From: Tilletia caries
Taxonomy: Eukaryota; Basidiomycota; Exobasidiomycetes; Tilletiales; Tilletiaceae
Direction of reading: 5' to 3'
DNA length: 64,000 nucleotides
Assembly: GCA_032718865.1 (NCBI GenBank)
Contig: JALUTQ010000038.1
Coordinates: 1-64,000, forward strand
Shown piece after piece: positions 18,401 through 56,786 of this stretch. The notes beneath the pieces were generated by a model. That model saw only the letters and a program-made list of their open reading frames with translations. It did no database searches and was not told where the DNA came from. Position numbers and translations under genes: made by a program. Every line of letters starts with the position of its first letter. Position 1 is the stretch's first letter.

Positions 18401-19005
18401 ATCCACTCATCGATCGTGGCCGTTCCATCACTTGCTGCACCTTCCGTGTCCTTGGCCTGCGAAGCACCAGCCGTTGAAGCGTATCGGAGCGCTTGGCTGA
18501 CGACAGCGTACGGAAGGCGAACGAAATGATTGACCACAGCGCTCTTGAACGCGAGCGAATTGACCAGAGGAACCCGTTTCACAATCTTTTGCGCCTCTGC
18601 TTCCGACGCCCTGCCGAGCTCGATCGCAACTCGTGCAGCTGCATGTGCGAACAGTGTGGGTGGGTGTTGAGCATCGCCTCCCGCCGTGGGAAGCACGTTG
18701 TCCTGACCGTCTCCGCTACCTGGCTGGGTAACGGGAAGAGCGATGTCCTCCTGCCGCTCGTCGACCATTTCTCGGTACCTGCGGTCTTGCTCGGCATGAA
18801 GTTTGAGCTGGATATCGATGACGCGAATCATGGCTTCGCCCAGCTGGGATCCTGCTAGTCCGACATGACTCAGAATGTCGCGCACTTGCGGGTGGGCAGT
18901 TGAGGCCAGCAGTGAGGAGCCCTCCTCCTCCAGGTCAGAATTATACATGTCGCTTGAGGCCAGCAGTGAGGAGTCCTCCTCCTCCTCCAGGTCAATGTCA
19001 GACAT
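15459..19005 (-). CDS. Large basidiomycete protein with nucleotidyltransferase-like DID motif
   Basis: Eight exons (19005-17930, 17849-17460, 17382-16954, 16872-16779, 16696-16618, 16536-16436, 16342-15887, 15782-15459) keep the frame and give 982 aa. The N-terminus is acidic with a near-tandem repeat (DLEEE..SSLLAS twice). The core (about 325-560) has VLVAGGIALAAL, then SDIDLYLWGL, RRVQVVLKLCPNPMAILLNF, a VAIGYTGDEVWMLPRASRAL block and RVFKYAQRGYGLRFLPSYI. I know this core from many uncharacterised basidiomycete proteins often labelled only 'ankyrin'. GG followed by DxD suggests a Pol-beta-type nucleotidyltransferase fold; that is inference. The C-terminal half is charged (KPKPKPK stretch). 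A ~310 bp inverted copy of its promoter and first codons lies at 25.4-25.7 kb. Confidence 0.7.
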
Positions 19006-19328
19006 GTCGGCTTCTGGTAGGAAGTAGTAGGGGGAAGAGACGGGGCAATGTGTGAGGGTGGGAAAAGTCAGAGCGAGGACGGGGGAAAGATCAGGAAAGA
19101 GGAGGGAGGACGGAAGAGGTCAGTAGCGACGAGCCCAGAGCTGGAGCGAAGAAGGAAGATGGTGAGCAACCTGCAACTCTTTCTCGCTCTGGTCACGACG
19201 GCCGCTGAATGATGGTGGGAAGGATGAAGGAACGAAAACGTACGATGGCCTCCGCTGCCAACAAGGAGGGAGTGCGCAGCCCTTAGCGCTCATAGCATGC
19301 ACCCATAGTACCAACCCCACGTCCCTAC
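19006..19328. repeat. Inverted repeat, left arm (promoter of the NTase-like gene)
   Basis: The complement of this stretch matches 25421-25746 almost base for base (by eye, well over 90% identical with a few short indels). It covers the promoter and 5' UTR of the NTase-like gene and continues into its first codons. The GTTGGTACTATGGGTGCATG segment and the TCGCTACTGACCTCTTCCGT segment are identical in both arms. The repeat flanks the ADE12-BMS1 pair. Confidence 0.9.
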
Positions 19329-25420: not shown

Positions 25421-25746
25421 CGAAAGAGTTATGGTAGGGTTGGTACTATGGGTGCATGCTATGAGCGCTAAGGGCTGCGTACTCCCTCCTTGTTGGCAGC
25501 AGAGGCCATCGTACGTTTTCGTTCCTTCATCCTTCCCACCATCATCAGCGGCCGTCGTGACCAGAGCGATAAAGAGTTGCAGGTTGCTCACCATCTTCCT
25601 TCTTCGCTCCAGCTCTGGGGTTCGTCGCTACTGACCTCTTCCGTCCTCCCTCCCCTTCCCCCGTCCTCGCTCCGACTCTTCCCACCCTTACACATTGCCC
25701 CGTCTCTTCCCCCTACTTCCTACCAGAGGCCGACATGTATAACATT
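25421..25746. repeat. Inverted repeat, right arm
   Basis: This is the near-identical inverted partner of 19006-19328. It runs from GTTATGGTAGGGTTGG through the GACCTCTTCCGTCCTCCCTC stretch into the start codon and the following codons (ATTGACCTGGAGGAGGAGGA) of a second, truncated copy of the NTase-like gene start. Identity ends shortly after GAGGACTC. Confidence 0.9.
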
Positions 25747-25842
25747 GACCTGGAGGAGGAGGACTCGAGGGGACGACTGACGGAGTCAAGGACCGGCGGG
25801 CGATCTTTGGGTAGGAGGCGACGAGGCGGAACGAGGGCATGA
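25735..25842 (+). pseudogene. Truncated copy of the first codons of the NTase-like gene
   Basis: The repeat carries the start codon and about ten codons: MYNIDLEEEDS here against MSDIDLEEEEDSS in the intact gene. After that the sequence is unrelated, and the frame ends at 25842 as a 35-codon basic ORF. It sits ~190 bases upstream of the Ohr/OsmC start, so if the copied promoter is active this would be a leader ORF. I read it as a remnant of the duplication and not a functional gene. Confidence 0.7.
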
Positions 25843-44522: not shown

Positions 44523-44956
44523 GTTTGACGAGTTCTGACCCGTTTGACGCGCTCTGAGCCGCTCCAATCCTCCGAGAAGCATCGTCTGCCTGGAATCAGA
44601 CCAACACCATCTTCGTCGTGTAAGGCAGCACCGTCTGAATGATGATACGCTTCAAGAAAAGATCCTGGACGTGTTGATGCTGCTACATATACATGTCGCG
44701 TTGCGGTGCCCAGCGAGAATGTGTATGCGTGCTGTGTATATATATTTGTCACAGGGAGAAATATTTAATTGACACCTGGTTCGTCTAGTTGGTTTCCATG
44801 TTGGTGTCTGGTTGGGATATTGGTGCAGCTCCGTCTCGCTGCTGTATCAATCTTTTGTTTTTTTTCTTCTTTTTTTCCTTTTTTCTTTCTTTTCTTTTTC
44901 TTTTTCTTCCCCAGCTGATTTTTAAAGGACCCCCCTCCTTCAAACGACGTCCTCCA
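44523..44956 (+). repeat. Displaced inverted copy of the GAL1 3' flank (segment A, copy 1)
   Basis: This stretch matches the complement of 54148-54588, which is the DNA directly after the GAL1 stop. Shared landmarks in the same order are TTTGACGAGTTC, GAGAAGCATCGTCTGCCTG, GATGATACGCTTCAAGAAAA, TATTTAATTGACACCTGGTT and GGTTGGGATATTGGTGCAGC, then a T-rich tract and CAGCTGATTTTT..GGACCCCCC. The T-rich tract differs in length. There is no GAL1 coding sequence beside this copy. Confidence 0.9.
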
Positions 44957-45156
44957 CTGTCCGCCTCAACAGCCCACCGCAGGAAACGATGCACGACATA
45001 TTCACTCCGTTTGTCTGCCGTACTCGTATATCTACGGCTGGCTGACTTTCTTCCCTTTCCCCGTTTGGGTTTGCTTTGGCCACCACCTCCCCATCTCTGC
45101 TTCGATTCCACTCACCTCTCTATCTTTCTTTCAGCACGGTGTTTCTTCCCCTCTTT
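44957..45156 (+). repeat. Segment B, copy 1
   Basis: It matches the complement of 52371-52612. Shared landmarks are TGTCCGCCTCAAC, CGCAGGAAACGATGCACGAC, ATATTCACTCCGTTTGT, ATCTCTGCTTCGATTCCACT and TTTCAGCA..GGTG. Here B directly continues segment A, whereas in the minus-strand copy A and B are separated by ~1.5 kb. Confidence 0.85.
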
Positions 45157-45310
45157 TCTTCTGATCGAAAGTATAAGCCTTGACGGCCCTCACTGCGTGT
45201 TCATACTTCTGGATTCCCTCCTCTCTTTCTCCTCTCAGGATTCCCCCCTCTTTCCCCCTATGCTTTTCTCACTCTCACTCTCACTCATAACTCCAGCAAC
45301 AGGAGACAAA

Positions 45311-46209
45311 ATGTCAACCTCCAGCCCACCCCGCCGGCTCAACACCTTCCCAACCAACTTCACCGCCCTCCTCCTCCTCGACTTCCTCCTCACCAGCTCA
45401 CTCTCACCCACCCACGCAGCCCGGATCTCCAACAACACCACAGCATTACCGCCGCTCCAACACGACCCGCTCGAGCGGATATCGTACCGCACCTTCCAGG
45501 CTGGCGACACTCAGGGAGCCGAATTCAACGTGAGCACGTACACGATGGATACGGGGTTGGCTTCTAGGACGCGGTCGCCTTCTGGTATCTATGGTTGTAA
45601 CTTTATTGTGAGCTTTTGGGTTCCTCTTTCCTTCGCAAAAGCTTGGTTCGTAGGGCACTGGCTCATGCTTCTTTCTTTGATTTCACACTCTGTGTGTAAT
45701 AGTGGCGCGGCGAGGCGTACGATCCCTCTGGCCCTCTTATGGTCTGGTTCGGCTCGTCTGCGTCTAGATGGTACGTATCCAACCCCCATCCACACTCCTC
45801 CCAAGAAACGACAGCTAACTGCCGCTCTTCTAAACTTTTACCAGCAACGACGTCTCCGACCCCACATGCGTCCTCTCCAAAGGCCTCTTCGAAGGCTGGC
45901 CCCAAACGAATCGCCGCCCACAGCCCGTACACCCGCACCCTCCTCACCGACGCCCACCTGTCCATCCCAACCATCCTCTCCCCGCTCTGCTACAACACAT
46001 CCACCTCCTCCCCCCTTTCCAATTCTTGCGGCTCGCCCGTCAAGATGCATGTGTGGAAGCATCATCGGCCAGAATTGGTCTTGGGAATTATGCAGGTTGT
46101 TAAGTATCGGTTTGGTTTTAATGAGCGGAGGGTTGTGGGTCCGCGGATGTCGATGGGTGTCAAGGCTGGTCCTTGGTTGAAAGGAACTAGAGGGTATCAG
46201 CAAGCATAA
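45311..46209 (+). CDS. Putative secreted protein, lineage-specific
   Basis: Three exons (45311-45607, 45703-45770, 45924-46209) give a frame-consistent 216 aa. It starts MSTSSPPRRLNTFPTNFTAL, followed by a Leu-rich hydrophobic stretch and SLSPTHAAR, which reads as a signal peptide with an Ala-x-Ala-type cleavage site. Potential N-glycosylation sites (NNTT, NVST) and two exon-spanning blocks follow (ISYRTFQAGDTQGAEFNVST; YDPSGPLMVWFGSSASR). The third exon (TRTLLTDAHLSIPTILSPLC) keeps frame only if the acceptor is CCCACAG at 45923; the nearer TACCAG acceptor gives a different tail. I do not recognise the family. The signal-peptide region shares DNA with the junction of the GAL1/EF-hand chimera at 51.5 kb. 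Confidence 0.4.
45340..45424 (+). repeat. Segment C, copy 1 (CTC-rich)
   Basis: The stretch AACTTCACCGCCCTCCTCCT through CTCCTCACCAGCTCACTCTC to ACCCACGCAG matches the complement of 51506-51618, where the CTC/CTT tract is longer. Both copies read [17 protein letters not shown] in one frame. Here it encodes the signal peptide of the preceding entry. Confidence 0.75.
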
Positions 46210-46706
46210 GACACGATCCGGCACTCGTACTGCTGGGAAGAAGGAGACCATAGCACATCAGCAGATTCTTTCACAGGAACAGAGCAAAACGTTACCCGAG
46301 TCCCGAGCGGCGAAACAGGCCCAGAGGAAGAAGGTGAGATCCCGAATGAGATGGGTTGCAAGTCTGAGCGCGGTCCTGACTCCATCTATACACACGCGCC
46401 GAACTAGATGAGAAAGGGGAGGATCGCCCGGACCGACCACTTACCTTCTCATTTGACACCTGCGTGCGTTGAGGACGACATCGACGCTGAAGTGGCAGGC
46501 GCATGATCGTCGCGGTCTGCAACTTGCAGCTCGATGGACCGAGCAAGGCGGACAGCGGACAGGTTCTCAGGTGGCCCGTGCCGATGTCCCGAAGAAATCA
46601 AGGAGGTGTCTCGCTGGCGGGTTGCGACGACGACGGCATCCGACTGACCACCAACGTCGACGCGCGCGTGTGAGGCGATTCAGTGACTACATACTCCGAG
46701 TGCGAC
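46210..46706. other. Intergenic stretch, no supported gene
   Basis: About 500 bases. Short frames only. The right end contains the 5' leader of the RD-rich protein gene. Nothing specific is seen. Confidence 0.35.
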
Positions 46707-48984
46707 ATGGCGGGCCTGGGGCTGACTCCCAGCGAGATCCGCGCGCTGCCAGAGCACGAGCTCATCCACCTCCTCGACAGGGTGAGGCTACTCGACCATA
46801 GACTCCAGTCCGAACTCGACTCCCACAGTCATGCTGCTGCTGCTCCGCCGGCTGCTGCTGCGCCGGCTGCGGCTGACGGCCAACATACCAGCAATCAGGC
46901 GCCCCAGCAAGAGCAACAGCCTTCGGAATTGATCGCAGCCATGGGCCAAATGCGCCAGCGGATCGACGAGTATGGCGCACGCTTCCGCGCTCGCGAAGCA
47001 CAGGTGCGCGCAAGGAGGGATCTCCTCGACCGGCTTCGACAGCCTCTCATCCCCGAGGGCATGCGCACCTCTGACCAATGGCGGACGTTGCTCACCCAGC
47101 CGCCCTTGACCCTGTCTCCCACACCTCCGCCTACCACCACCTCCCAGCCTCGGCAACCTGTCAATCCTCAGGGCGTGTCCGACTATGAGCGCTGGCTGGC
47201 GGTGTTCACCCAGCCGCCCGGGACGGTGCCCATTCCTCCGCCTCTTGGGAGCAACTACTTGGACATCCCGGTGCCGAGCCTCGTCCGGCGTCTTGAAACG
47301 CTGTCAACCTCGCACATTGTCGAGGTCAACAATGTGCCCACAGGTGAGTCTGTCGCTGATCGTGAGCACACTAATGATTGTTTTGACTGAACTCTACTCC
47401 GCCTCACTCTGAAGATCACCGGCCCAATCCGCTATCTGACGGAACCGAAGACGTCAGACTCAGGATCGGTAGACTGGGTGGACTCGGCCACGAAATACGG
47501 CTCATTCAGAACCTGCCTCCCTCCCGCGAACGCGTCAGCACCCTCGCCCACAAGAAGATTCTCCGCGCCCCATCGCAGGGCTTTTACTGCCAAGGACAGA
47601 ACCAGCAGGCACAATGGCCGAACTCGTTCTGGACCGCCCCCAGTGAGAAGAAGAAGAAGCCAGCAAAGAGAAGGGTCGCATTTCGGGATGCGAACGCTTC
47701 GAGCCTGATGTTGGATATCGGCCGCGATCCCTCGACGGGGACATCACTCAAGAGATTGAGAATTCAGCTTGGGCTGGTGGACCCTCCAGCAACCAGCCGG
47801 ACCTTTCCGCAGTCGACGTGTTCATGGCGCCCGCCGAGATCGAGGCTCTACCTGAATCCGAATTTCTCGTCCCCTACCCACCCCCGGAATTCCCCTTTGC
47901 AATCCTCGTCGACACCCTCCGCGAGTTCATGCACGAGAACGAAGGCATTGCTATGTCTTTCAGTCTTCTCGGTCAGAAGTTGTCCAATCGTGGGTTCAAC
48001 TGCAAGAGGAATTTGGGGATCAAGACTATGAAGGAGATGGTCTGGATGGCTCGGAGAAGCATTGGTTTTGGATGGACTGATCCCGCGAACCCCACCGCCT
48101 CGTGGATTTGGCTTTGGGATGTCGACAGGCCCTATCGGGCCCCTTTGTGCACTGAAAAGCAGTGGGAGGCCTTCCAAGCATCGAGGAAAGGATGGGAGCC
48201 GCCAGGTCTCAAGCGGGGCATGGTCAACGTCATGCGCGGCGGCGTCGGCTTGGTTTCGGACAAGGGCAAGAAAAAGAATTCGGCCTTCTGGGCGTCGCTT
48301 CCGAGGGGCGAAGGGTATTCACGGCCGCCTCGCGCCAACACGGCCGGCCCGGCCACGACTCGTTGGCCCGACAACGACCATCGGCGGCACGAAGTTTTTG
48401 CGGCCTCCGTGGGCCCGTCCACGGGGAGGGCCACACGTGCGCCGATGGATGACCACGACGACTGGCGACATGTCCCTGATCATTCACGAGGGAAGGGCAA
48501 AAAGCGTATGCTTGATGAGCATGTTGTGGAGGAGGACGACTGGTTCGAACGTCGCTCTCGGGACTTGGGGCGAGAGCAAGACCGAGAACGGGAACGGAGA
48601 GACCGAGAACGAGAACGAGGGCCGCGACATATCGACTCGGACCGAGATCGCGACCAGAGTCGTGACCGTGACCACGACCGCGACTGGAATCGTGACCACG
48701 ATCGTAACTGGGGCCGCAGCCAGGAAAGAGACCGTAGCCACGACCGTGACCGTGACCACGACCGCGACCGCAACCGTGACCGGAATCGTGACCACGATCG
48801 TAACTGGGGCCGCAGCCAGGAAAGAGACCGTAGCCACGACCGTGACCGCGACCGCGACTGGATTCGTGACAGCAGCCGGGACGAGCGGGGACGATACGGG
48901 CCCCGAGAAGAAGAGCGGAACTGTCGACGTGGTGGAAACGGGTCGGATTCGTACCCGCTCGAGAAGCGGGTGCGTCGGGATTGA
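46707..48984 (+). CDS. RD/RE-repeat protein with two similar PxEIxALPExE motifs
   Basis: Three exons (46707-47343, 47415-47642, 47813-48984) give a frame-consistent 678 aa. I do not recognise the family. The N-terminus has LTPSEIRALPEHELIHLL and a coiled coil (RVRLLDHRLQSEL, RQRIDEYGARFRAREAQ). Exon 3 opens with MAPAEIEALPESEF, strikingly like the N-terminal motif, then a compact domain (FAILVDTLREFMHENEG, LGQKLSNRGFNCKRN, MARRSIGFGWTDP, SWIWLWDV). The C-terminal ~150 residues are dominated by alternating Arg/Asp or Arg/Glu dipeptides, as in RNA-processing proteins. The second intron (170 bases) is uncertain: the skipped DNA is also open in the exon 2 frame. Confidence 0.5.
48640..48866. repeat. 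Degenerate CGTGAC repeats with a ~98-base duplicated unit
   Basis: Within the coding region, CGTGACCACGAC-like hexamers are tandem. A longer unit containing AACTGGGGCCGCAGCCAGGA and AGAGACCGTAGCCACGACCG occurs at about 48704-48757 and again at about 48802-48855. The duplication is in frame and repeats the same residues (NWGRSQERDRSHDRDRD). Confidence 0.9.
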
Positions 48985-50068
48985 GGGGATGATGTCTCCC
49001 CTAACTTCTTCCCCTTATCTTTATCAGGTTAACATAGTCGACGGACACACACGAGATTTCGATTTGGCCTCCTCTCCCTGAGGAACTCATGTACCTTTCC
49101 CTCCAGGACGCAAGACGCAATAATTATCGCTAGTGGCCACGCTCTTCCGATCCCTCCCACCATGCTGCCTCGATGGGAAGCCATCGTTCTTGCGCCCCGA
49201 CGAGGTGGAAGCTCAAAAGCCCAAGAATAGTTGCTGATCTTCTTCCTCCCTCCTCCCTCCTTTCCACCTTTCTGTCCCTTCCCCCCCTTCTTTCCCATTC
49301 CTCCTCCTTAGTACTGATTGGTACAGGCGTACAGTACCTCGGCACCGAATACTTGAACCACGATGGCCGATAGTTCCGTTTCCAGCTCCCACCGACTTCA
49401 CGCCGCGGCCAAATGAGTCGCTTGGCTCAGGCATCACGTCCGGCATGGGTTCGTCCTGACACATGAACGGTCAGCCAACGACGTCGCACGGCTCATGGGG
49501 AGAGTCGATGTCCCACGGGACTTGCCTTGTAAGGTACGATGAGCTGGTGCTTCGTGTAAGTAGAGGTAAGATTGTAAGAACTCATGTGTTTTGTGTGCTC
49601 TTGTTACGAGTATGCAACGCGACGAGGGCTGACTTCCGCGGAAAGTTCCACCCCATCATCACCTGTATCGAGTTCACTCCCATGCCTTGGCCTTTGCCTT
49701 CACTTCAGTTCACATCTTCATCTCCCTCTCATTCTAGACCGCCTCGCCGAACTCTCCCTTCCCAGATACGCATTTGTGCTCCGTTTCGCCATCGCTCTCG
49801 CTCGCCATCTCCATAGATGGCGAGCTCGTAAGTTCGTAACTCGCCGGTGTTCGACGTTTTGCTCACACTTTCTTCCTCTGTCACTTCTCAGCTCGCCCTC
49901 GTTTGATTGCTCCTCGCTCTCGCCCGCTAACCCTCTCTCTTCCTAATAAACCCGACTCTCGAACAGGTTATCGACCATACCCCTCTCCGCCATACCTAAA
50001 CCGTCTCGCCTTCTCCCCTCCCATATCCCCTCTGCACAGATATTCTCTGAGGTTCTGTCTTCCCTCAG
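48985..50068. other. Intergenic stretch, no firm gene
   Basis: About 1.1 kb. A start-like ATGGCGAGCTC followed by a GTAAGT donor at 49817-49833 and a CGAACAG acceptor at 49969 could be the first intron of the next gene, but the frame does not reach its later exons cleanly. Pyrimidine-rich DNA at 49240-49310. Nothing else is supported. Confidence 0.3.
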
Positions 50069-50976
50069 AACGACTCGGCTGCCCCCTGGAAGGATGGCGT
50101 TGTCAGCTTGGCGGTGAGTCGTCTTTCGGGCTACCCCAGCGCCAAATTTGCAGCCGATCTTCCACCACGAGGAGCGGGAACGGCAGGGGCGGGGTATCCC
50201 CCGTCATCATCAGCATCAGGGTCAGGGTCAGGAGCGGGAGCGGGGCGAGGTGGGGATCGGGGCATTGGACGAGCCGGAGACGAGGAGGGGGAGGAAGGCG
50301 TTCTCCCATCAGGGCCTGTTCGCTCCGGAGTCCGGATGGTACGTCTCACTCCTCCCTGACTGACAAACCGATCTATGCCATCGCGCTCGACCGTCGGCAT
50401 ATGCGCTCCCCCAGGGCCCGGGGATGAGGGCCTCGGTCCCAATGAGCGAGACGACCGGTACGGAGTTACATCCCGCTACGATGAGCGCGCTCGCCTCTTC
50501 TTCGACCCCTCAATACCAAGCCCATCAACAAGGATAAACACAGTCGCAAAGTACCTCCCCCTGCCCGCACACGTGGCAGGTCATCCGTACTACACGCGCG
50601 CACGGATCAAGGTGGACGATCTGAAGCATGCGTTGCGGAAGGATGGTAAGAAGTATGCGAGGGTGGAGGAGTTATTGTCATTGGATAAGGAGGCGAAGAG
50701 GCAGATGAACGTGGGTGTGGAGGCGGTTGCTGCTGTTGGTGGGAGTCAGTGGGAGTCAGTGGGAGTGTGGAGAGGGTGGGGCGACCTGAGGGGTGGAATG
50801 TCAAGTGTTGTTCGCTTCTCTTCGTCCTTACTCTCGCCTCTCGATGGAACCTGACATCTGATCACAAGGGGGACAAAGCGAGCTGTTCCTCAGACAGTGT
50901 ATCAGAAAGTAGTTACGACGAGCAGGAGGGGAGAAGTGAACAAGGGCCATACGGGGACGACGAGGGGGTGTTATGA
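50069..50976 (+). CDS. Lineage-specific protein, 5' end unresolved
   Basis: Three frame-compatible exons can be read: 50069-50338 (after a CCTCAG acceptor; NDSAAPWKDGVVSLAV, then Gly/Ser/Ala-rich), 50429-50710 and 50869-50976. The middle exon has YGVTSRYDERARLFFDPS, STRINTVAKYLPLPAHVAGH, YYTRARIKVDDLKHALRK and VEELLSLDKEAKRQM. The last exon is acidic and Ser-rich and ends at a TGA at 50974. I do not recognise it. The GATGAG acceptor of the middle exon is weak, and the first exon(s) with the start codon were not found. Confidence 0.35.
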
Positions 50977-51523
50977 TACAAGGCCTGATGCCTGATGCCT
51001 GATGTCTGATGACGCTTGGGGGCCGGGTGAACCTGGCGAGGCGAATGAGGGTGTAGGAGGAGGGGGGATGATCTGCTCATTGGGAGAGGATGACCTAGAC
51101 GAAGTGGCGGTAGTCTACGGTCCCGTCACTGCAGCCGAGAAAGCGTGTAGGACAAAGAAAGGGACCAGGGTCAGACGAAACGTCAACCAAAGCGTGGAGA
51201 GTGAAAGATATGCACGCGCCAACCTGTACGTTCTTGAGCAACTCGTTGACCTCCTCGTGCTCGAGCTTCTCGCCGAGGGAGGTGAGGAGGTAGCGCAGTT
51301 CGCCGACGGAGATGTACCCATCGCCTTCCTTGTCGAACACATGAAAGCCGCGAATGAACTCCTCTATATGAATCATAGGGAGAGAGTCAGCACTGGGTGT
51401 TGCAGTCAAGAGAGGTGAGTAAGAGGAGGAACCTGGAGTACCAGCAGGCTCAAACTCATTAGGCCTGTTCAAGATGTGGAAAGAAGTATTGAAGTCGACC
51501 TTGCGTGGGTGAAAGTGAGCTGG

Positions 51524-51598
51524 TGAGGAGGAGAAGAAGGAGGAGAAGAAGGAGGAGAAGGAGGAGAAGGAGGAGAAGGAGGAGAAGGAGGAGAAGGG
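51524..51598. repeat. Polypurine GGAGAA/GGAGAAG tract at the chimera junction
   Basis: About 75 bases of G/A-only sequence (GAGGAGAAGGAGGAGAAGG type). On the coding (minus) strand it is CTC/CTT-rich. It lies exactly between the GAL1-derived and light-chain-derived parts and is an expanded version of segment C at 45.4 kb. Confidence 0.95.
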
Positions 51599-51619
51599 CG
51601 GTGAAGTTGTTTCCGTCGG

Positions 51620-52369
51620 CGCAACTTCGGCCATCTCCGTCCGGTCCACAAGTGACCTCGCTCCAAAGGCCTCGAGGATGACCAAGCTGGAGCAGACAGT
51701 CATAGCTGCGCTCGAACTCAGACTGGATTCCGGTGGGATAGAGCCATCGACGAGGATGCTGATTGTCCGGGGACGGGTCGAGGCGGAGAGTACGGAAGGT
51801 GGCAGATGGGAGTGAAGGCCCTGTGAAATGGGCGTTAGCAGAGACCACAGCGTCAGTTCTAGCCTCGCAATTGCACTGCTCAAGCTTGAACCGGCAAAAG
51901 GCAGACTCACCTTCCATGCCACAGCAAAGTAGTTCCCCCACCGCTGCGAGCCCTCATCATGATGAATGAGGTCCACCGCGCCAGAGTCAAGCACACTGGG
52001 CGCAGTGAGCGTGACCGCCTTGAACCGGTCGCGCGTATTGGCGAGGTAGAACTCGATCGGGTCCGAGGGGTCCAGCGCAGGCGTCACGGAGACGGCCATG
52101 AGGATGTCCTTCTCGATCGCTGCTGGCAGACAGCTGCATGGAAGACAGAGACAGCCTGGTGTAAGAAGGGCATGGTACTTCGGCAGGCCAGCACGAGATC
52201 CACCCCCGTGGCGCGTCTTGCTCACCTGAATCCCTGATGGTCGACATGGCTGAGAGAGAACAATGTCAGCCGCACATGTCACACCACACGCAATAACGCC
52301 ATACTCACTCGCCAATGATGTTCACCCTGCCCGGCGCGCGCGCAACAAAGGCAGGCTTGCGTCCGTAAA
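51620..52369 (-). repeat. Segmental copy of GAL1 exons 1-4 (partner 55914-56659)
   Basis: About 750 bases match 55914-56659 in the same orientation at an offset of ~4.29 kb, including introns. By eye only scattered differences are seen (for example GTCCGTAAAT against GTCCATAGAT at one edge and a small indel near 51885-51905). Identity across introns means the copying was recent and DNA-level, not from mRNA. Confidence 0.93.
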
Positions 52370-52370
52370 T

Positions 52371-52612
52371 TAGAGGGGAAGAAGCACCCTGCTGAAAGAA
52401 GAATAAGAGAGAGAGGAAGAGACAGAGATGAGTGGAATCGAAGCAGAGATGGGAGATGGTGGTCAAGCTTCGAACAAAAACCAAACGGGGGAAAGGAAGA
52501 GAGTCAGCCGTAGAGATACGAGTGAGGCAGAACAAACGGAGTGAATATGTCGTGCATCGTTTCCTGCGGTCTGCTTCGGACGCGTGTGTGGACGGTTGAG
52601 GCGGACAATGGA
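52371..52612 (-). repeat. Segment B, copy 2
   Basis: The complement matches 44957-45156. It abuts the GAL1-derived copy, so it would supply the 5' region of the chimeric gene. In-frame reading into the GAL1 part gives TTYSLRLFCLTRISTADSLP and then YGRKPAF, without an ATG in that frame. Confidence 0.85.
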
Positions 52613-54147
52613 TGATTTCTGAACCTCTGGTTCGGATCTTGATGGTGGTGAAAAGGTGGATTGATGTTGGTGGTTATGAAGAAGTACAAACGGAAGACAA
52701 GAAGGGGGGACAAAAGGCTCAAATGAGGGACCTAGTATAGACGGAGCGCAAATGTCTCTGCTCTGGACCTAAGGAGAGAAATAGAAATAGCGTTGAACAT
52801 GTAAGAGAAAGAGTGCATAACCCCGCGCCAGAATGGTGGTTAGTGTACTGGTTGTCCATAAGATTTCTGCTCGACCATACGCATTCACCCGGCCGAGAGA
52901 ATTCACCATATAAAGACACCTTCTCGATGCACAAAACAACAGCAAAACCACATCCATTCAAAATCCTTCTGCTTCCTTCAGTACAACTCAAATGCGTTCC
53001 CGTCACTCGTCACGCGTCCCGGTCCACTTACGGGTACCTTGTTTCCTTTCGCACGGAGCTGACATTCTCACTTCCTGCCCACGTCGACAGTACTGACGAT
53101 GATTTTGTGGCTGACCGCTGACCTGTCTGTCTTTCCCCTGTCTCTGCCTCCCGATGTCACTTCAACAGCAGCCTTCCCCCTGTGTTCCTGTCTTTCCTGG
53201 CTTTGGATTGCCGCTTTCCTTTCCCTTTTCCAAGGTGTTGCTTTGGCTTCCTGCAGTCTCTGATCTCTCCAGTCTCTACTCTTCCTCACTTTTTCCCATC
53301 CTTTTGCAGTCCGCATCGCCGCACACCAGATCGCAACACGGCATCGTCATCACCAACACCATCTCGCCTTCCCTCTTCTCACCTTTTCTCGTCCCTTCCC
53401 ATCATCACACAGGTGATTATCAGCGCTGCCTCACATGACACTTCCTGCTCAAAGTGCTGATAGTAACACGATCTCTCCTTCTACGTAGCCCCGGCGTCTC
53501 CAAGGACGGTCATTTCGCATGGCCTCAAGTACGTTCCATTCGACCATTCCCTTTTTTTCCATCGCGATTGCGTTTGCTGACCTGTTTTTCCCGTTGGCCT
53601 TTCCTTCAGCACCGTCTCTACAGCCACATGATCCTGGCGTCCTCATTCTTGTCCGACTTCGGCATACCGCTCGATGTTGCTGAGCCCGCCGCTCCCTCGC
53701 CTCGTCCACTTCCTACGACTGTGGAAAACTGCTCGACCTCGCCGACGGCCTCTTGCCCTGTCCACAAGTGTGAGTTTGATCCGACGCTGGAGATAATGAC
53801 CGTGCATTGACTGGCACTTCTGTCTTTCTCCTCTCTCTCAGCCGAATTCACAGCCCTGGTGGAGCTCCTACAGACAGACTGCATATACCTCTTCTCCGAT
53901 AGCTGTACACATATAACAGATTCGATTCATTATTCATTCCTTTTCGGAGTTCATAGTTCATGCCATCAGGCATACTTTACATTCTTCACCTCCTTCCCCT
54001 TTCACTCCCGTCTTCGCACGTTCCTTTTGCTGGAACGAAAGAAGATGCTGTTCCTTTTATCCTCACCTTGTTTATGCTACCCTGTGTATATGCTTCTGAG
54101 ACCTTTGGAGGTTCAGAACTCCGCCGCTTGTCGGCTATCCCCCACTC
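52613..54147. other. 1.5 kb between segments A and B; possible small gene exons
   Basis: This stretch separates segments A and B on the minus-strand copy but is absent from the 44.9 kb copy. On the plus strand, exon-like pieces occur at 53489-53527 (PGVSKDGHFAWPQ, after a CTACGTAG acceptor) and 53610-53770 (HRLYSHMILASSFLSDFGIP, ending near CPVHK). After a GTGAGT..TCAG intron a third piece may follow at ~53842 (EFTALVELLQTDC). The frames join, but no start was found and I recognise nothing. The left part (52613-53480) shows no coding signal. Confidence 0.3.
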
Positions 54148-54588
54148 TCATGGTCGTTTGATGGAGGGGGGGGTCCTCCAAAAATCAGCTGGATGGGAAG
54201 AAAAAGAAGAAAAAAGACAAAAAAAAAGGAAGAAAAAAAAAAAGGAAAAAAAGACAAAAGATTGATACAGCAACGTGAAGAGGCTGCACCAATATCCCAA
54301 CCAGACACCAACATGAAAACCAACTAGACGAACCAGGTGTCAATTAAATATCTCTCCCTGTGACAAACATATATACACAGCACACACACACATTGTCGCT
54401 GGGGCACCAATAAACCGCGACATGCATGTCACATAAAGTAGCAGCATCAACACGTCCAGGTTCTTTTTCTTGAAGCGTATCATCATTCAGACGGTGCAGG
54501 AAGATGGTGTTGGTCTGATTTCAGGCAGACGATGCTTCTCGGAGGCTCGGAGCGGCTCAGAGCGCGTCAAGCGGGTTAGAACTCGTCA
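54148..54588 (-). repeat. GAL1 3' flank (segment A, copy 2, original position)
   Basis: The DNA just after the GAL1 stop codon. Its complement is repeated at 44523-44956. It contains an A-rich tract (54200-54260 on the plus strand) that differs in length between the copies. Confidence 0.9.
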
Positions 54589-54599
54589 AACTTCTTCGC

Positions 54600-56786
54600 T
54601 CAGATGTAGTACAAGCAAGCTCCTCCAGCAGGCTCGCTAACAAGCACTGCGCTCTCAAGCTCCTCGGCTGTCTTGTGCTGCGGAGAGGATGGGTCTACGG
54701 AGGACGAGAAGCGCTTCTCAAAGTACCCTTTCCGGATCGCGGAGATGAAGCGCGGGACGTCCGGCTGTGGGACCAGATTTACGGCGGACCCGCCCCATCC
54801 TGCGCCTGTGAGGGAGGGGAATATAGATGGGTCAGTCTCGGATGAAAGCGCTTCAAGTCAAGATCGAACGCACCTGTTTGACGGGCCGCCCATGCCCCAT
54901 TCTTCAGCGCAATCTCCACAATCTCATCCAACTCAGGACAGCTGCTCTCAAACTCGCCCCTCAAGCTGGTGTGCGAGTCGTTCATGAGCTTGGCCAGTTG
55001 CTTGTACGCCTCGGTGGCCGAGTTGTCGCTTGTGTTGGCACAGACGTTCTTGAAGGCCAGGACGCGAGCAGACTCGGAGAGGACGTGGGAAACTCGGGCG
55101 CTCAGCTTGAAGGTGTCCGCTCGGACTGGGAAAAGGAAGGCGAGTCTGTCAGCCACTAATTAGCAAGCCCAATCTCTTCGGCTCAAGGCCATGAAACAAC
55201 GTACTGGGGAAGCGCTGCAAGAACTCCTTATCATACGCCTCGCCACTCAAGCCCGTTGCCTCCTCCACCTGCTCGCGAGTAAGCGCGCCAGAAGGCAAGT
55301 TCTCCGCAGCCACCTTGGCAAACGCATTCAGTTGCTCCTCCGTCTCATCCCCCTTATCCTCCGAGCCAGCACCCTGCTGAGTAGCCAACCAAGCGCGGAA
55401 GATGCTCCGAATAGTGACGTCCTCCTCTTGCTGTCCGCTCGCAGTGGTATGAGTGGGCAATTTGAGACCGAGACGTCTCTGGAGGGCCCGACTTGCCATT
55501 CGGAGCTCGGCCGTGCGGAGGTTGTAGTGGATCGGACCTGTGACCTTCTTGTCGGAGACGACGAGGGTGTTCACGATCACGAACTGCATGGGCGGGTTGA
55601 TGGGAGGTAGGGCTGTGGGGGTGGCTAGCAATTTGGGCTTGAAGGCGATGTGGAGAGCATGGGATGGTACGCCGAATATGGAGGCTGCTTGGTCCATTCT
55701 GCTCGTTTCCGGCACAGGAGAGAAAGGAGATCACTGATCAGAGAAAGGAGAACGACCTAGCGAAGCCGCCCAGGATGACGCGAAGCTCACCCTCCCGAAT
55801 TGACACCGACCAGACGTTCTGTAGGGCGAATACGGAAGCATGTAAGCAACAATCCGCTTCGGAAACGCCGCTTCGAATTGCCAGTATGAAAGCCCAACTC
55901 ACCGCTCTCAATCGCAACTTCGGCCATCTCCGTCCGGTCCACAAGTGACCTCGCTCCAAAGGCCTCGAGGATGACCAAGCTGGAGCAGACAGTCATAGCT
56001 GCGCTCGAACTCAGACTGGATTCCGGTGGGATAGAGCCATCGACGAGGATGCTGATTGTCCGGGGACGGGTTGAGGCGGAGAGCACGGAAGGGGGCAGAT
56101 GGGAGTGAAGGCCCTGTGAAATGGGCGTTAGCAGAGACCATAGCGTCAGTTCTAGCCTCGCAATTGCACTGCTGAACTTGAACCAGCACAAGAGACTCAC
56201 CTTCCATGCCACAGCAAAGTAGTTCCCCCACCGCTGCGAGCCCTCATCATGATGAATGAGGTCCACCGCGCCAGAGTCAAGCACACTGGGCGCAGTGAGC
56301 GTGACCGCCTTGAACCGGTCGCGCGTATTGGCGAGGTAGAACTCGATCGGGTCCGAGGGGTCCAGCGCAGGCGTCACGGAGACGGCCATGAGGATGTCCT
56401 TCTCGATCGCTGCTGGCAGACAGCTGCATGGAAGACAGAGACAGCCTGGTGTAAGAAGGGCATGGTACTTCGGCAGGCCAGCGCGAGATCCACCCCCGTG
56501 GCGCGTCTTGCTCACCTGAATCCCTGATGGTCGACATGGCTGAGAGAGAACAATGTCAGCCGCACATGTCACACCACACGCAATAACGCCATACTCACTC
56601 GCCAATGATGTTCACCCTGCCCGGGGCGCGCGCAACAAAGGCAGGCTTGCGTCCATAGATCTCCTCAAAGCGCGTGGCGAGGTTGTCCCAGCGAACGCCT
56701 TGCTCGGCGAGTGCGGCGGAAGAAGGGTAAATTTCGGCCAGCGTCTTGACTGCGGGCACGGCGTCAAAGGAGGAAGAGGAGCTCAT
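54600..56786 (-). CDS. GAL1: Galactokinase
   Basis: Eight exons (56786-56599, 56516-56539, 56423-56201, 56113-55903, 55818-55791, 55698-55205, 55125-54874, 54805-54600) give 541 aa. The GHMP-kinase signatures are all present: [19 protein letters not shown] (galactose/ATP site, made across exons 1-2), the Ser-rich nucleotide loop [13 protein letters not shown], the VGVNSGGMDQAASIFG block, and GAGWGGSAVNLV near the C-terminus. It phosphorylates galactose in the Leloir pathway. Two exons are tiny (24 and 28 bases). The start is the ATG opening MSSSSSFDAVPAVKTL. No GAL7 or GAL10 neighbour is present, so galactose genes are not clustered here. Half of this gene and its 3' flank have been copied elsewhere in the tract. 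Confidence 0.95.
55914..56659 (-). repeat. GAL1 segment duplicated at 51620-52369
   Basis: The source copy of the duplicated GAL1 piece, inside the intact gene from exon 1 to exon 4. The edges are GTCCATAGAT (56651-56660) and GCAACTTCGGCC (55914). Confidence 0.92.

What the first reader, a model, noticed from the sequence alone, without database searches (positions are those of the whole stretch)
51095..52369. GAL1/EF-hand chimera with matching splice phases
A 750-base copy of galactokinase exons 1-4 is joined, without a break in frame, to the last two EF-hands of a Cdc4-like essential myosin light chain. The donor and acceptor sites on both sides are intact, and my hand-spliced exons agree in phase across the junction, so one transcript could encode a GHMP-kinase N-lobe plus an EF-hand pair. 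GAL1 introns are included, so this is DNA-level shuffling. The missing GAL1 start codon and the TAG near the end argue for a pseudogene, but new chimeric genes often look like this early on.
Basis: partly seen in the sequence, partly recalled or inferred. Interest (0 to 1): 0.8.

Follow-up and report, generated by a model that had tools for sequence, protein, structure and literature searches.

The report
Accidental join of two broken genes
In a bunt-fungus genome, a broken copy of a sugar-processing gene lies in frame beside a broken copy of a cell-division gene; the join is real in this assembly but looks like debris of copying and deletion rather than a new working gene.

Summary
In detail: on the minus strand a 745-bp GAL1 copy (exon 1 part to exon 4 part, introns kept) runs without a frame break into the last EF-hand exons of a Cdc4-type light chain, ending at a TAG six codons early. 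A new chimeric gene is not supported. The GAL1 piece is a truncated duplicate (98.4%) of the full GAL1 gene nearby. The EF piece belongs to an old copy of a two-gene block whose other gene (TAF13-like) is broken; the intact light-chain gene is on another contig. The 118 bp between them derive from a third predicted gene and are open in all three frames, so staying in frame had about a 1/3 chance. No ATG lies in the open frame upstream, GAL1 exons 5-8 are absent, and both EF-side splice donors lost +5 G. The locus lies in a ~12-kb patchwork of duplicated pieces; the Helitron beside it does not enclose it. Best reading: a chimeric pseudogene made by duplication, deletion and end-joining. Transcription could not be tested. 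The organism is a Tilletia close to T. caries.

The parts
51620..52370 (-). GAL1 fragment: exon 1 part (52309-52370), exon 2 (52226-52249), exon 3 (51911-52133), exon 4 part (51620-51820), with introns
   Evidence: 98.4% over 745 bp to window 55913-56654; exons 2-4 placed; exon 1 end inferred from the constant offset to the GAL1 gene
51502..51619 (-). Junction: piece resembling predicted gene X (window 45358-45414, hydrophobic N-terminal stretch, putative signal peptide by eye) with an expanded TTCTCCTCC-type repeat; read in another frame than in gene X
   Evidence: 59-bp match E 9e-6; alignment; frames
51433..51501 (-). EF-hand exon A (coding match from 51499), continuous with GAL1 exon 4 through the junction; donor GTTCCT
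51216..51363 (-). EF-hand exon B; donor GTGCAT
51077..51128 (-). EF-hand exon C; TAG at 51095-51097, native stop at its end
50127..50862 (+). TAF13-like neighbour gene copy, broken by a 117-bp deletion and other gaps; part of the same old block as the EF exons (end approximate)
   Evidence: TFIID-18kDa family in the C36 copy
52371..52573 (-). S block: upstream region of gene X; joined to the truncated GAL1 at the same point in C33:96063-97023
52612..54151 (+). Non-autonomous Helitron (Helitron2-like ends, ends placed by eye) carrying a piece of a ~190-bp dispersed repeat; beside the chimera, not around it
54600..56786 (-). GAL1 gene: 8 exons, 541 aa, open from ATG to stop
   Evidence: a 232-aa T. 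caries partial protein is an exact substring
44976..46165 (+). Predicted gene X copy with its S block, matched at C5:296911-298122 (about 83%)
44523..44948 (+). Copy of the GAL1 3' flank (86% to 54153-54591), next to S and gene X: the order inferred for the ancestral locus

Best explanation
A chimeric pseudogene. All steps are inferred: (1) a head-to-tail duplication of a unit running from inside GAL1 exon 1 through the GAL1 3' flank to the S block upstream of gene X placed S directly before a start-less GAL1 copy; (2) a deletion from inside exon 4 of that copy into the start of gene X removed the rest; (3) end-joining put this remnant against an old copy of a TAF13-CDC4 segment, of which only the 3' exons of CDC4 remain; (4) a Helitron inserted between the GAL1 3' flank and S (its order among the steps is not shown). 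The open frame is inherited: the GAL1 piece is recent or was refreshed from GAL1, and the CDC4 copy had probably been under selection before it was cut. It most likely makes no protein.
For: Shown: a full GAL1 gene 2.2 kb away and a second copy at C33:96277-98345 sharing the S-GAL1 breakpoint. The EF homology runs on into the broken TAF13-like copy. Junction matched to gene X. Stretches 34.0-42.3 kb and 56.7-63.9 kb have only matches of up to 63 bp or distant ones (65-75%) in the genome, whereas 44.5-56.7 kb is duplicated in pieces. No ATG in the open frame upstream to 52673. Both EF-side donors lost the +5 G that 9 of 9 donors of GAL1 (7) and C36 CDC4 (2) have. EF part: 9 amino-acid changes plus one stop; T. 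maclaganii keeps the C36 residue at all nine (compared by eye). GAL1 exons 5-8, with NSGGMDQ (recalled as holding the catalytic Asp) and the GHMP C domain, are absent.
Against: The reading is open, and the four exonic differences from GAL1 change no amino acid. The fragment has 2 private exon changes against 13 in the other truncated copy (two-sided binomial p 0.007), which selection would explain, as would gene conversion or recent copying from GAL1. EF exons have no gap in 267 bp where about 6 are expected from the rest of the block. S here against S' in the other copy differs by about 10% over 142 bp, more than the GAL1 copies (about 3%) or S against S (4.1%), so one simple tandem duplication is not a perfect fit. 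No RNA data were available.
Confidence: 0.86

Rival explanations
1. A young chimeric gene: transcribed from the gene X upstream region (S), spliced, and translated into a GAL1 N-part plus EF-hand protein under selection.
For: Open reading through the join; gene X upstream sequence precedes it; few exon changes in the GAL1 part; no gaps in EF exons.
Against: No ATG in the open frame upstream; weakened EF donors; TAG; half of a GHMP N domain; the gene next door explains the GAL1 part; no two-part protein among the 120 listed of 635 hits.
Confidence: 0.07
2. Helitron gene capture made the chimera.
For: 60 Helitron_like_N matches in the genome, some being pieces of one element; a Helitron lies directly beside.
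Against: Both ends of that Helitron (52612, 54151) leave the chimera outside; no second copy of either end within 3 mismatches in the window. Ends of other Helitron families were not tested.
Confidence: 0.04
3. Assembly artefact: similar copies mis-joined during assembly.
For: Three similar GAL1 copies on one contig; a T. caries record holds only a partial GAL1 on a contig of 961 bases.
Against: The S-GAL1 breakpoint is present at two places with private changes in each; the copies differ by 1-4% and have distinct flanks. The GAL1-gene X-EF junction itself is seen only once, so this is not excluded for that join.
Confidence: 0.03

Closest known systems
Chimeric pseudogenes in segmental-duplication mosaics (general kind, recalled)
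   Same: Partial gene copies with introns, abutting at non-homologous junctions, beside intact source genes
   Different: This one happens to keep frame and has a third gene's low-complexity piece at the join
Galactokinase GAL1 (GHMP kinase)
   Same: Galactose-binding signature and first half of the GHMP N domain, same exon boundaries
   Different: No start; exons 5-8 absent
Cdc4-type essential myosin light chain
   Same: Third EF-hand and most of the fourth, same introns and phases
   Different: First 52 residues absent; premature TAG; weakened donors
Helitron-captured gene fragments (Fusarium FoHeli survey, PMC5148889, passages read; Pleurotus, PMC4289320, search listing only)
   Same: DNA-level gene fragments near a Helitron
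   Different: The fragments lie outside the element's ends

Membership tests
Galactokinase (GHMP kinase) | Galactose-binding signature PF10509 | tested here: met
   E 7.9e-19
Galactokinase (GHMP kinase) | Complete GHMP N domain, catalytic-Asp motif (recalled) and GHMP C domain | tested here: not met
   Profile 15-63 of 87 only and no PF08544; exons 5-8 absent
Cdc4 essential light chain | Two EF-hand pairs over about 140 aa | tested here: not met
   Only residues from VDFN on remain, stop six residues early
Functional chimeric gene | Open frame across the join | tested here: met
Functional chimeric gene | Start codon in frame | tested here: inconclusive
   None in the open frame up to 52673; an upstream spliced exon cannot be excluded without RNA
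Functional chimeric gene | Strong splice donors | tested here: not met
   Both EF-side donors lack +5 G; the GAL1-side donors are intact
Functional chimeric gene | Transcript or protein | not testable with these tools
   No RNA-seq held; no two-part protein in the 120 listed of 635 hits
Helitron gene capture | Fragments enclosed between Helitron ends | tested here: not met
   (one Helitron family only)

The most novel reading that the evidence does not exclude
A newly born fusion gene in a Tilletia, driven by the upstream region of another predicted gene, whose GAL1 half is kept by purifying selection as a non-catalytic sugar-binding module tied to an EF-hand. The low number of exon changes in the GAL1 part and the gap-free EF exons do not exclude it.
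Probability: 0.05. Interest if true: 0.65.

Novelty: new member of a known kind. Interest (0 to 1): 0.2.

Why it matters
It shows how an in-frame, spliceable-looking chimera can come from debris: one recent truncated copy, one old segmental copy, and a stop-poor low-complexity linker. It is a caution for gene-birth calls made from open frames alone, and points to a patchwork, Helitron-bearing genome in bunt fungi. If RNA did span the join, it would be a very young fusion gene with all parent genes still present.

Tried and rejected
Helitron capture: tested after finding many Helitron matches; the element's ends exclude the chimera. Gene conversion from GAL1: three sequences alone cannot show it, so it is kept only as a possibility. 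An upstream ATG exon: no ATG in the contiguous open frame; a spliced 5' exon was considered by eye only and left as speculation. Junction origin: a genome-wide search with 161 bp found only itself, but a local comparison matched gene X (59 bp, E 9e-6; alignment). Rfam on 44-57 kb and tRNA search on the window gave nothing. Pfam (E <= 0.01) on the gene X start and on five raw window frames gave nothing. Literature: 'Tilletia galactokinase' gave 2 papers, neither on this by title; 'Tilletia / Helitron / gene capture' listed 8 of 60 papers, none of the 8 naming Tilletia; some searches listed 15 of 61, 12 of 35 and 15 of 23 papers. None of these listings shows a report of this locus.

Full report
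Where it is. The window is the first 64 kb of contig C33 of a 38.1-Mb genome in 40 contigs. GAL1 from the window is 89% identical in protein to Tilletia indica and 83% to T. horrida, and a 232-aa partial protein of T. caries is an exact substring of it. A decayed CDC4 copy on contig C4 has the peculiar residues of a predicted T. controversa protein. The organism is thus a Tilletia near T. caries, T. controversa and T. laevis. Since the genus includes a listed crop pathogen, I describe only.

The observation. On the minus strand, 52370-51620 is a copy of GAL1 from inside exon 1 to inside exon 4, introns included. Against the full GAL1 gene at 56786-54600 it has 4 substitutions in 504 exon sites, none changing an amino acid, and 6 substitutions plus 3 gap columns in 238 intron sites. 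It continues through 118 bp into three exons matching the 3' part of a Cdc4-like light chain. The spliced reading is open up to TAG at 51097-51095. Pfam finds the galactose-binding signature, part of the GHMP N domain, and an EF-hand pair.

What the pieces are. EF piece: the homology does not stop at the gene but runs on, from 51501 to 50127, into a copy of the neighbouring TAF13-like gene of contig C36 (77-81%), which here has lost 117 bp and other pieces. The intact light-chain gene, 140 aa, is on C36; a further broken copy is on C4. GAL1 piece: a second GAL1 copy at C33:96277-98345 is open over 501 codons but lacks the same 5' part and is joined to the same upstream block S at the same point. 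At 18 residues where this copy differs from the GAL1 gene, the T. indica residue agrees with the gene at 12, with the copy at 1, and with neither at 5, so that copy is decaying. S is the upstream region of predicted gene X, present next to gene X at 44976-46165. The junction piece resembles the start of gene X, a hydrophobic, signal-peptide-like stretch judged by eye, with an expanded 9-bp-type repeat, read here in a different frame.

Why not a gene. The contiguous open frame upstream to 52673 has no ATG. Exons 5-8 of GAL1, with the motif recalled to hold the catalytic Asp and with the GHMP C domain, are absent. Both EF-side donors lost the +5 G that 9 of 9 donors in GAL1 (7) and C36 CDC4 (2) have. 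The junction is stop-free in all three frames, so an in-frame result needed only luck of about one in three. All nine replaced EF residues are unchanged in T. maclaganii (by eye); one of them (G to E) is shared with the C4 copy and the T. controversa protein. None of the 120 listed of 635 hits carries Pfam domains of both halves; that search admits proteins of 0.55 to 1.75 times the query length (about 160-509 aa) and scored 7989 candidates.

Results that go the other way. In the block copied from C36, EF exons have 0 gaps in 267 bp against 25 gaps in 1067 aligned bp elsewhere (one of the 25 is at the edge of the alignment); 6.3 expected, Poisson P(0) 0.002. dN is 0.054 and dS 0.252. The light-chain copy was therefore probably under selection for a time before it was cut. 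The GAL1 part has 2 private exon changes against 13 in the other truncated copy (p 0.007). Recent copying or gene conversion from GAL1 next door explains this as well as selection does; three sequences cannot decide.

Setting and mechanism. Stretches 34.0-42.3 kb and 56.7-63.9 kb have only matches of up to 63 bp or distant ones in the genome; the rest of the flanks was not tested. In contrast 44.5-56.7 kb is largely a chain of abutting duplicated pieces from C5, C32, C36, C35 and C33. The order GAL1 - 3' flank - S - gene X is preserved in parts at 44.5-46.2 kb, at C33:96.1-98.9 kb and here, which suggests a tandem duplication followed by a deletion from GAL1 exon 4 into gene X. These steps are inferred. 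S here against S' of the other copy differs by about 10% over 142 bp, against 3-4% for other parts, which is not fully explained.

Helitron. The stretch 52612-54151 has a 37-bp match to the 5' region and a long match to the 3' region of a Helitron on C35, whose frames hit PIF1 helicase and Helitron_like_N. By eye it has an inverted repeat and a hairpin near the 3' end, as described for Helitron2 types (PMC5148889, passages read). Helitrons in T. caries, T. controversa and T. laevis are already reported: PMC9172201 (passages read) lists helitronORF among the transposon classes, and 37% repeats in a long-read T. controversa assembly. The element separates the GAL1 3' flank from S; the other two copies of that site lack it, with a 5-bp difference. 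The chimera lies outside it.

Verdict. A real but ordinary chimeric pseudogene in a duplication patchwork; not shown to be expressed.

Noticed in passing
window 52612-54151; C35:1169958-1178336: Non-autonomous Helitron2-like element holding a piece of another repeat, with a coding relative on C35; 60 Helitron_like_N matches genome-wide, some being pieces of one element.
   Followed up: partly
window 52641-52831: About 190-bp repeat with 10 near-complete copies at 91-100% identity elsewhere and shorter copies that mostly share one end; type not determined.
   Followed up: partly
L003 / C33:96277-98345: Second GAL1 copy, open over 501 codons but lacking the first 43, with mostly derived amino-acid changes; a start-less copy behind the gene X upstream block.
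   Followed up: partly
L005 / C4:166094-167005: Broken CDC4 copy with an insertion and a frameshift; its counterpart appears as a predicted protein in T. controversa (P0172).
   Followed up: partly
window 44523-56660: Patchwork of abutting duplicated gene pieces; how common such islands are in this genome was not measured.
   Followed up: partly
window 18977-19320 and 25434-25763: Inverted pair of about 340-bp copies, 92% identical.
   Followed up: no
window 48664-48858: Two neighbouring 99-bp copies, 93% identical.
   Followed up: no
L005 1010-1120 and 1268-1350: A tRNA-like stretch that seems to occur twice, the second time cut short (seen by eye).
   Followed up: no
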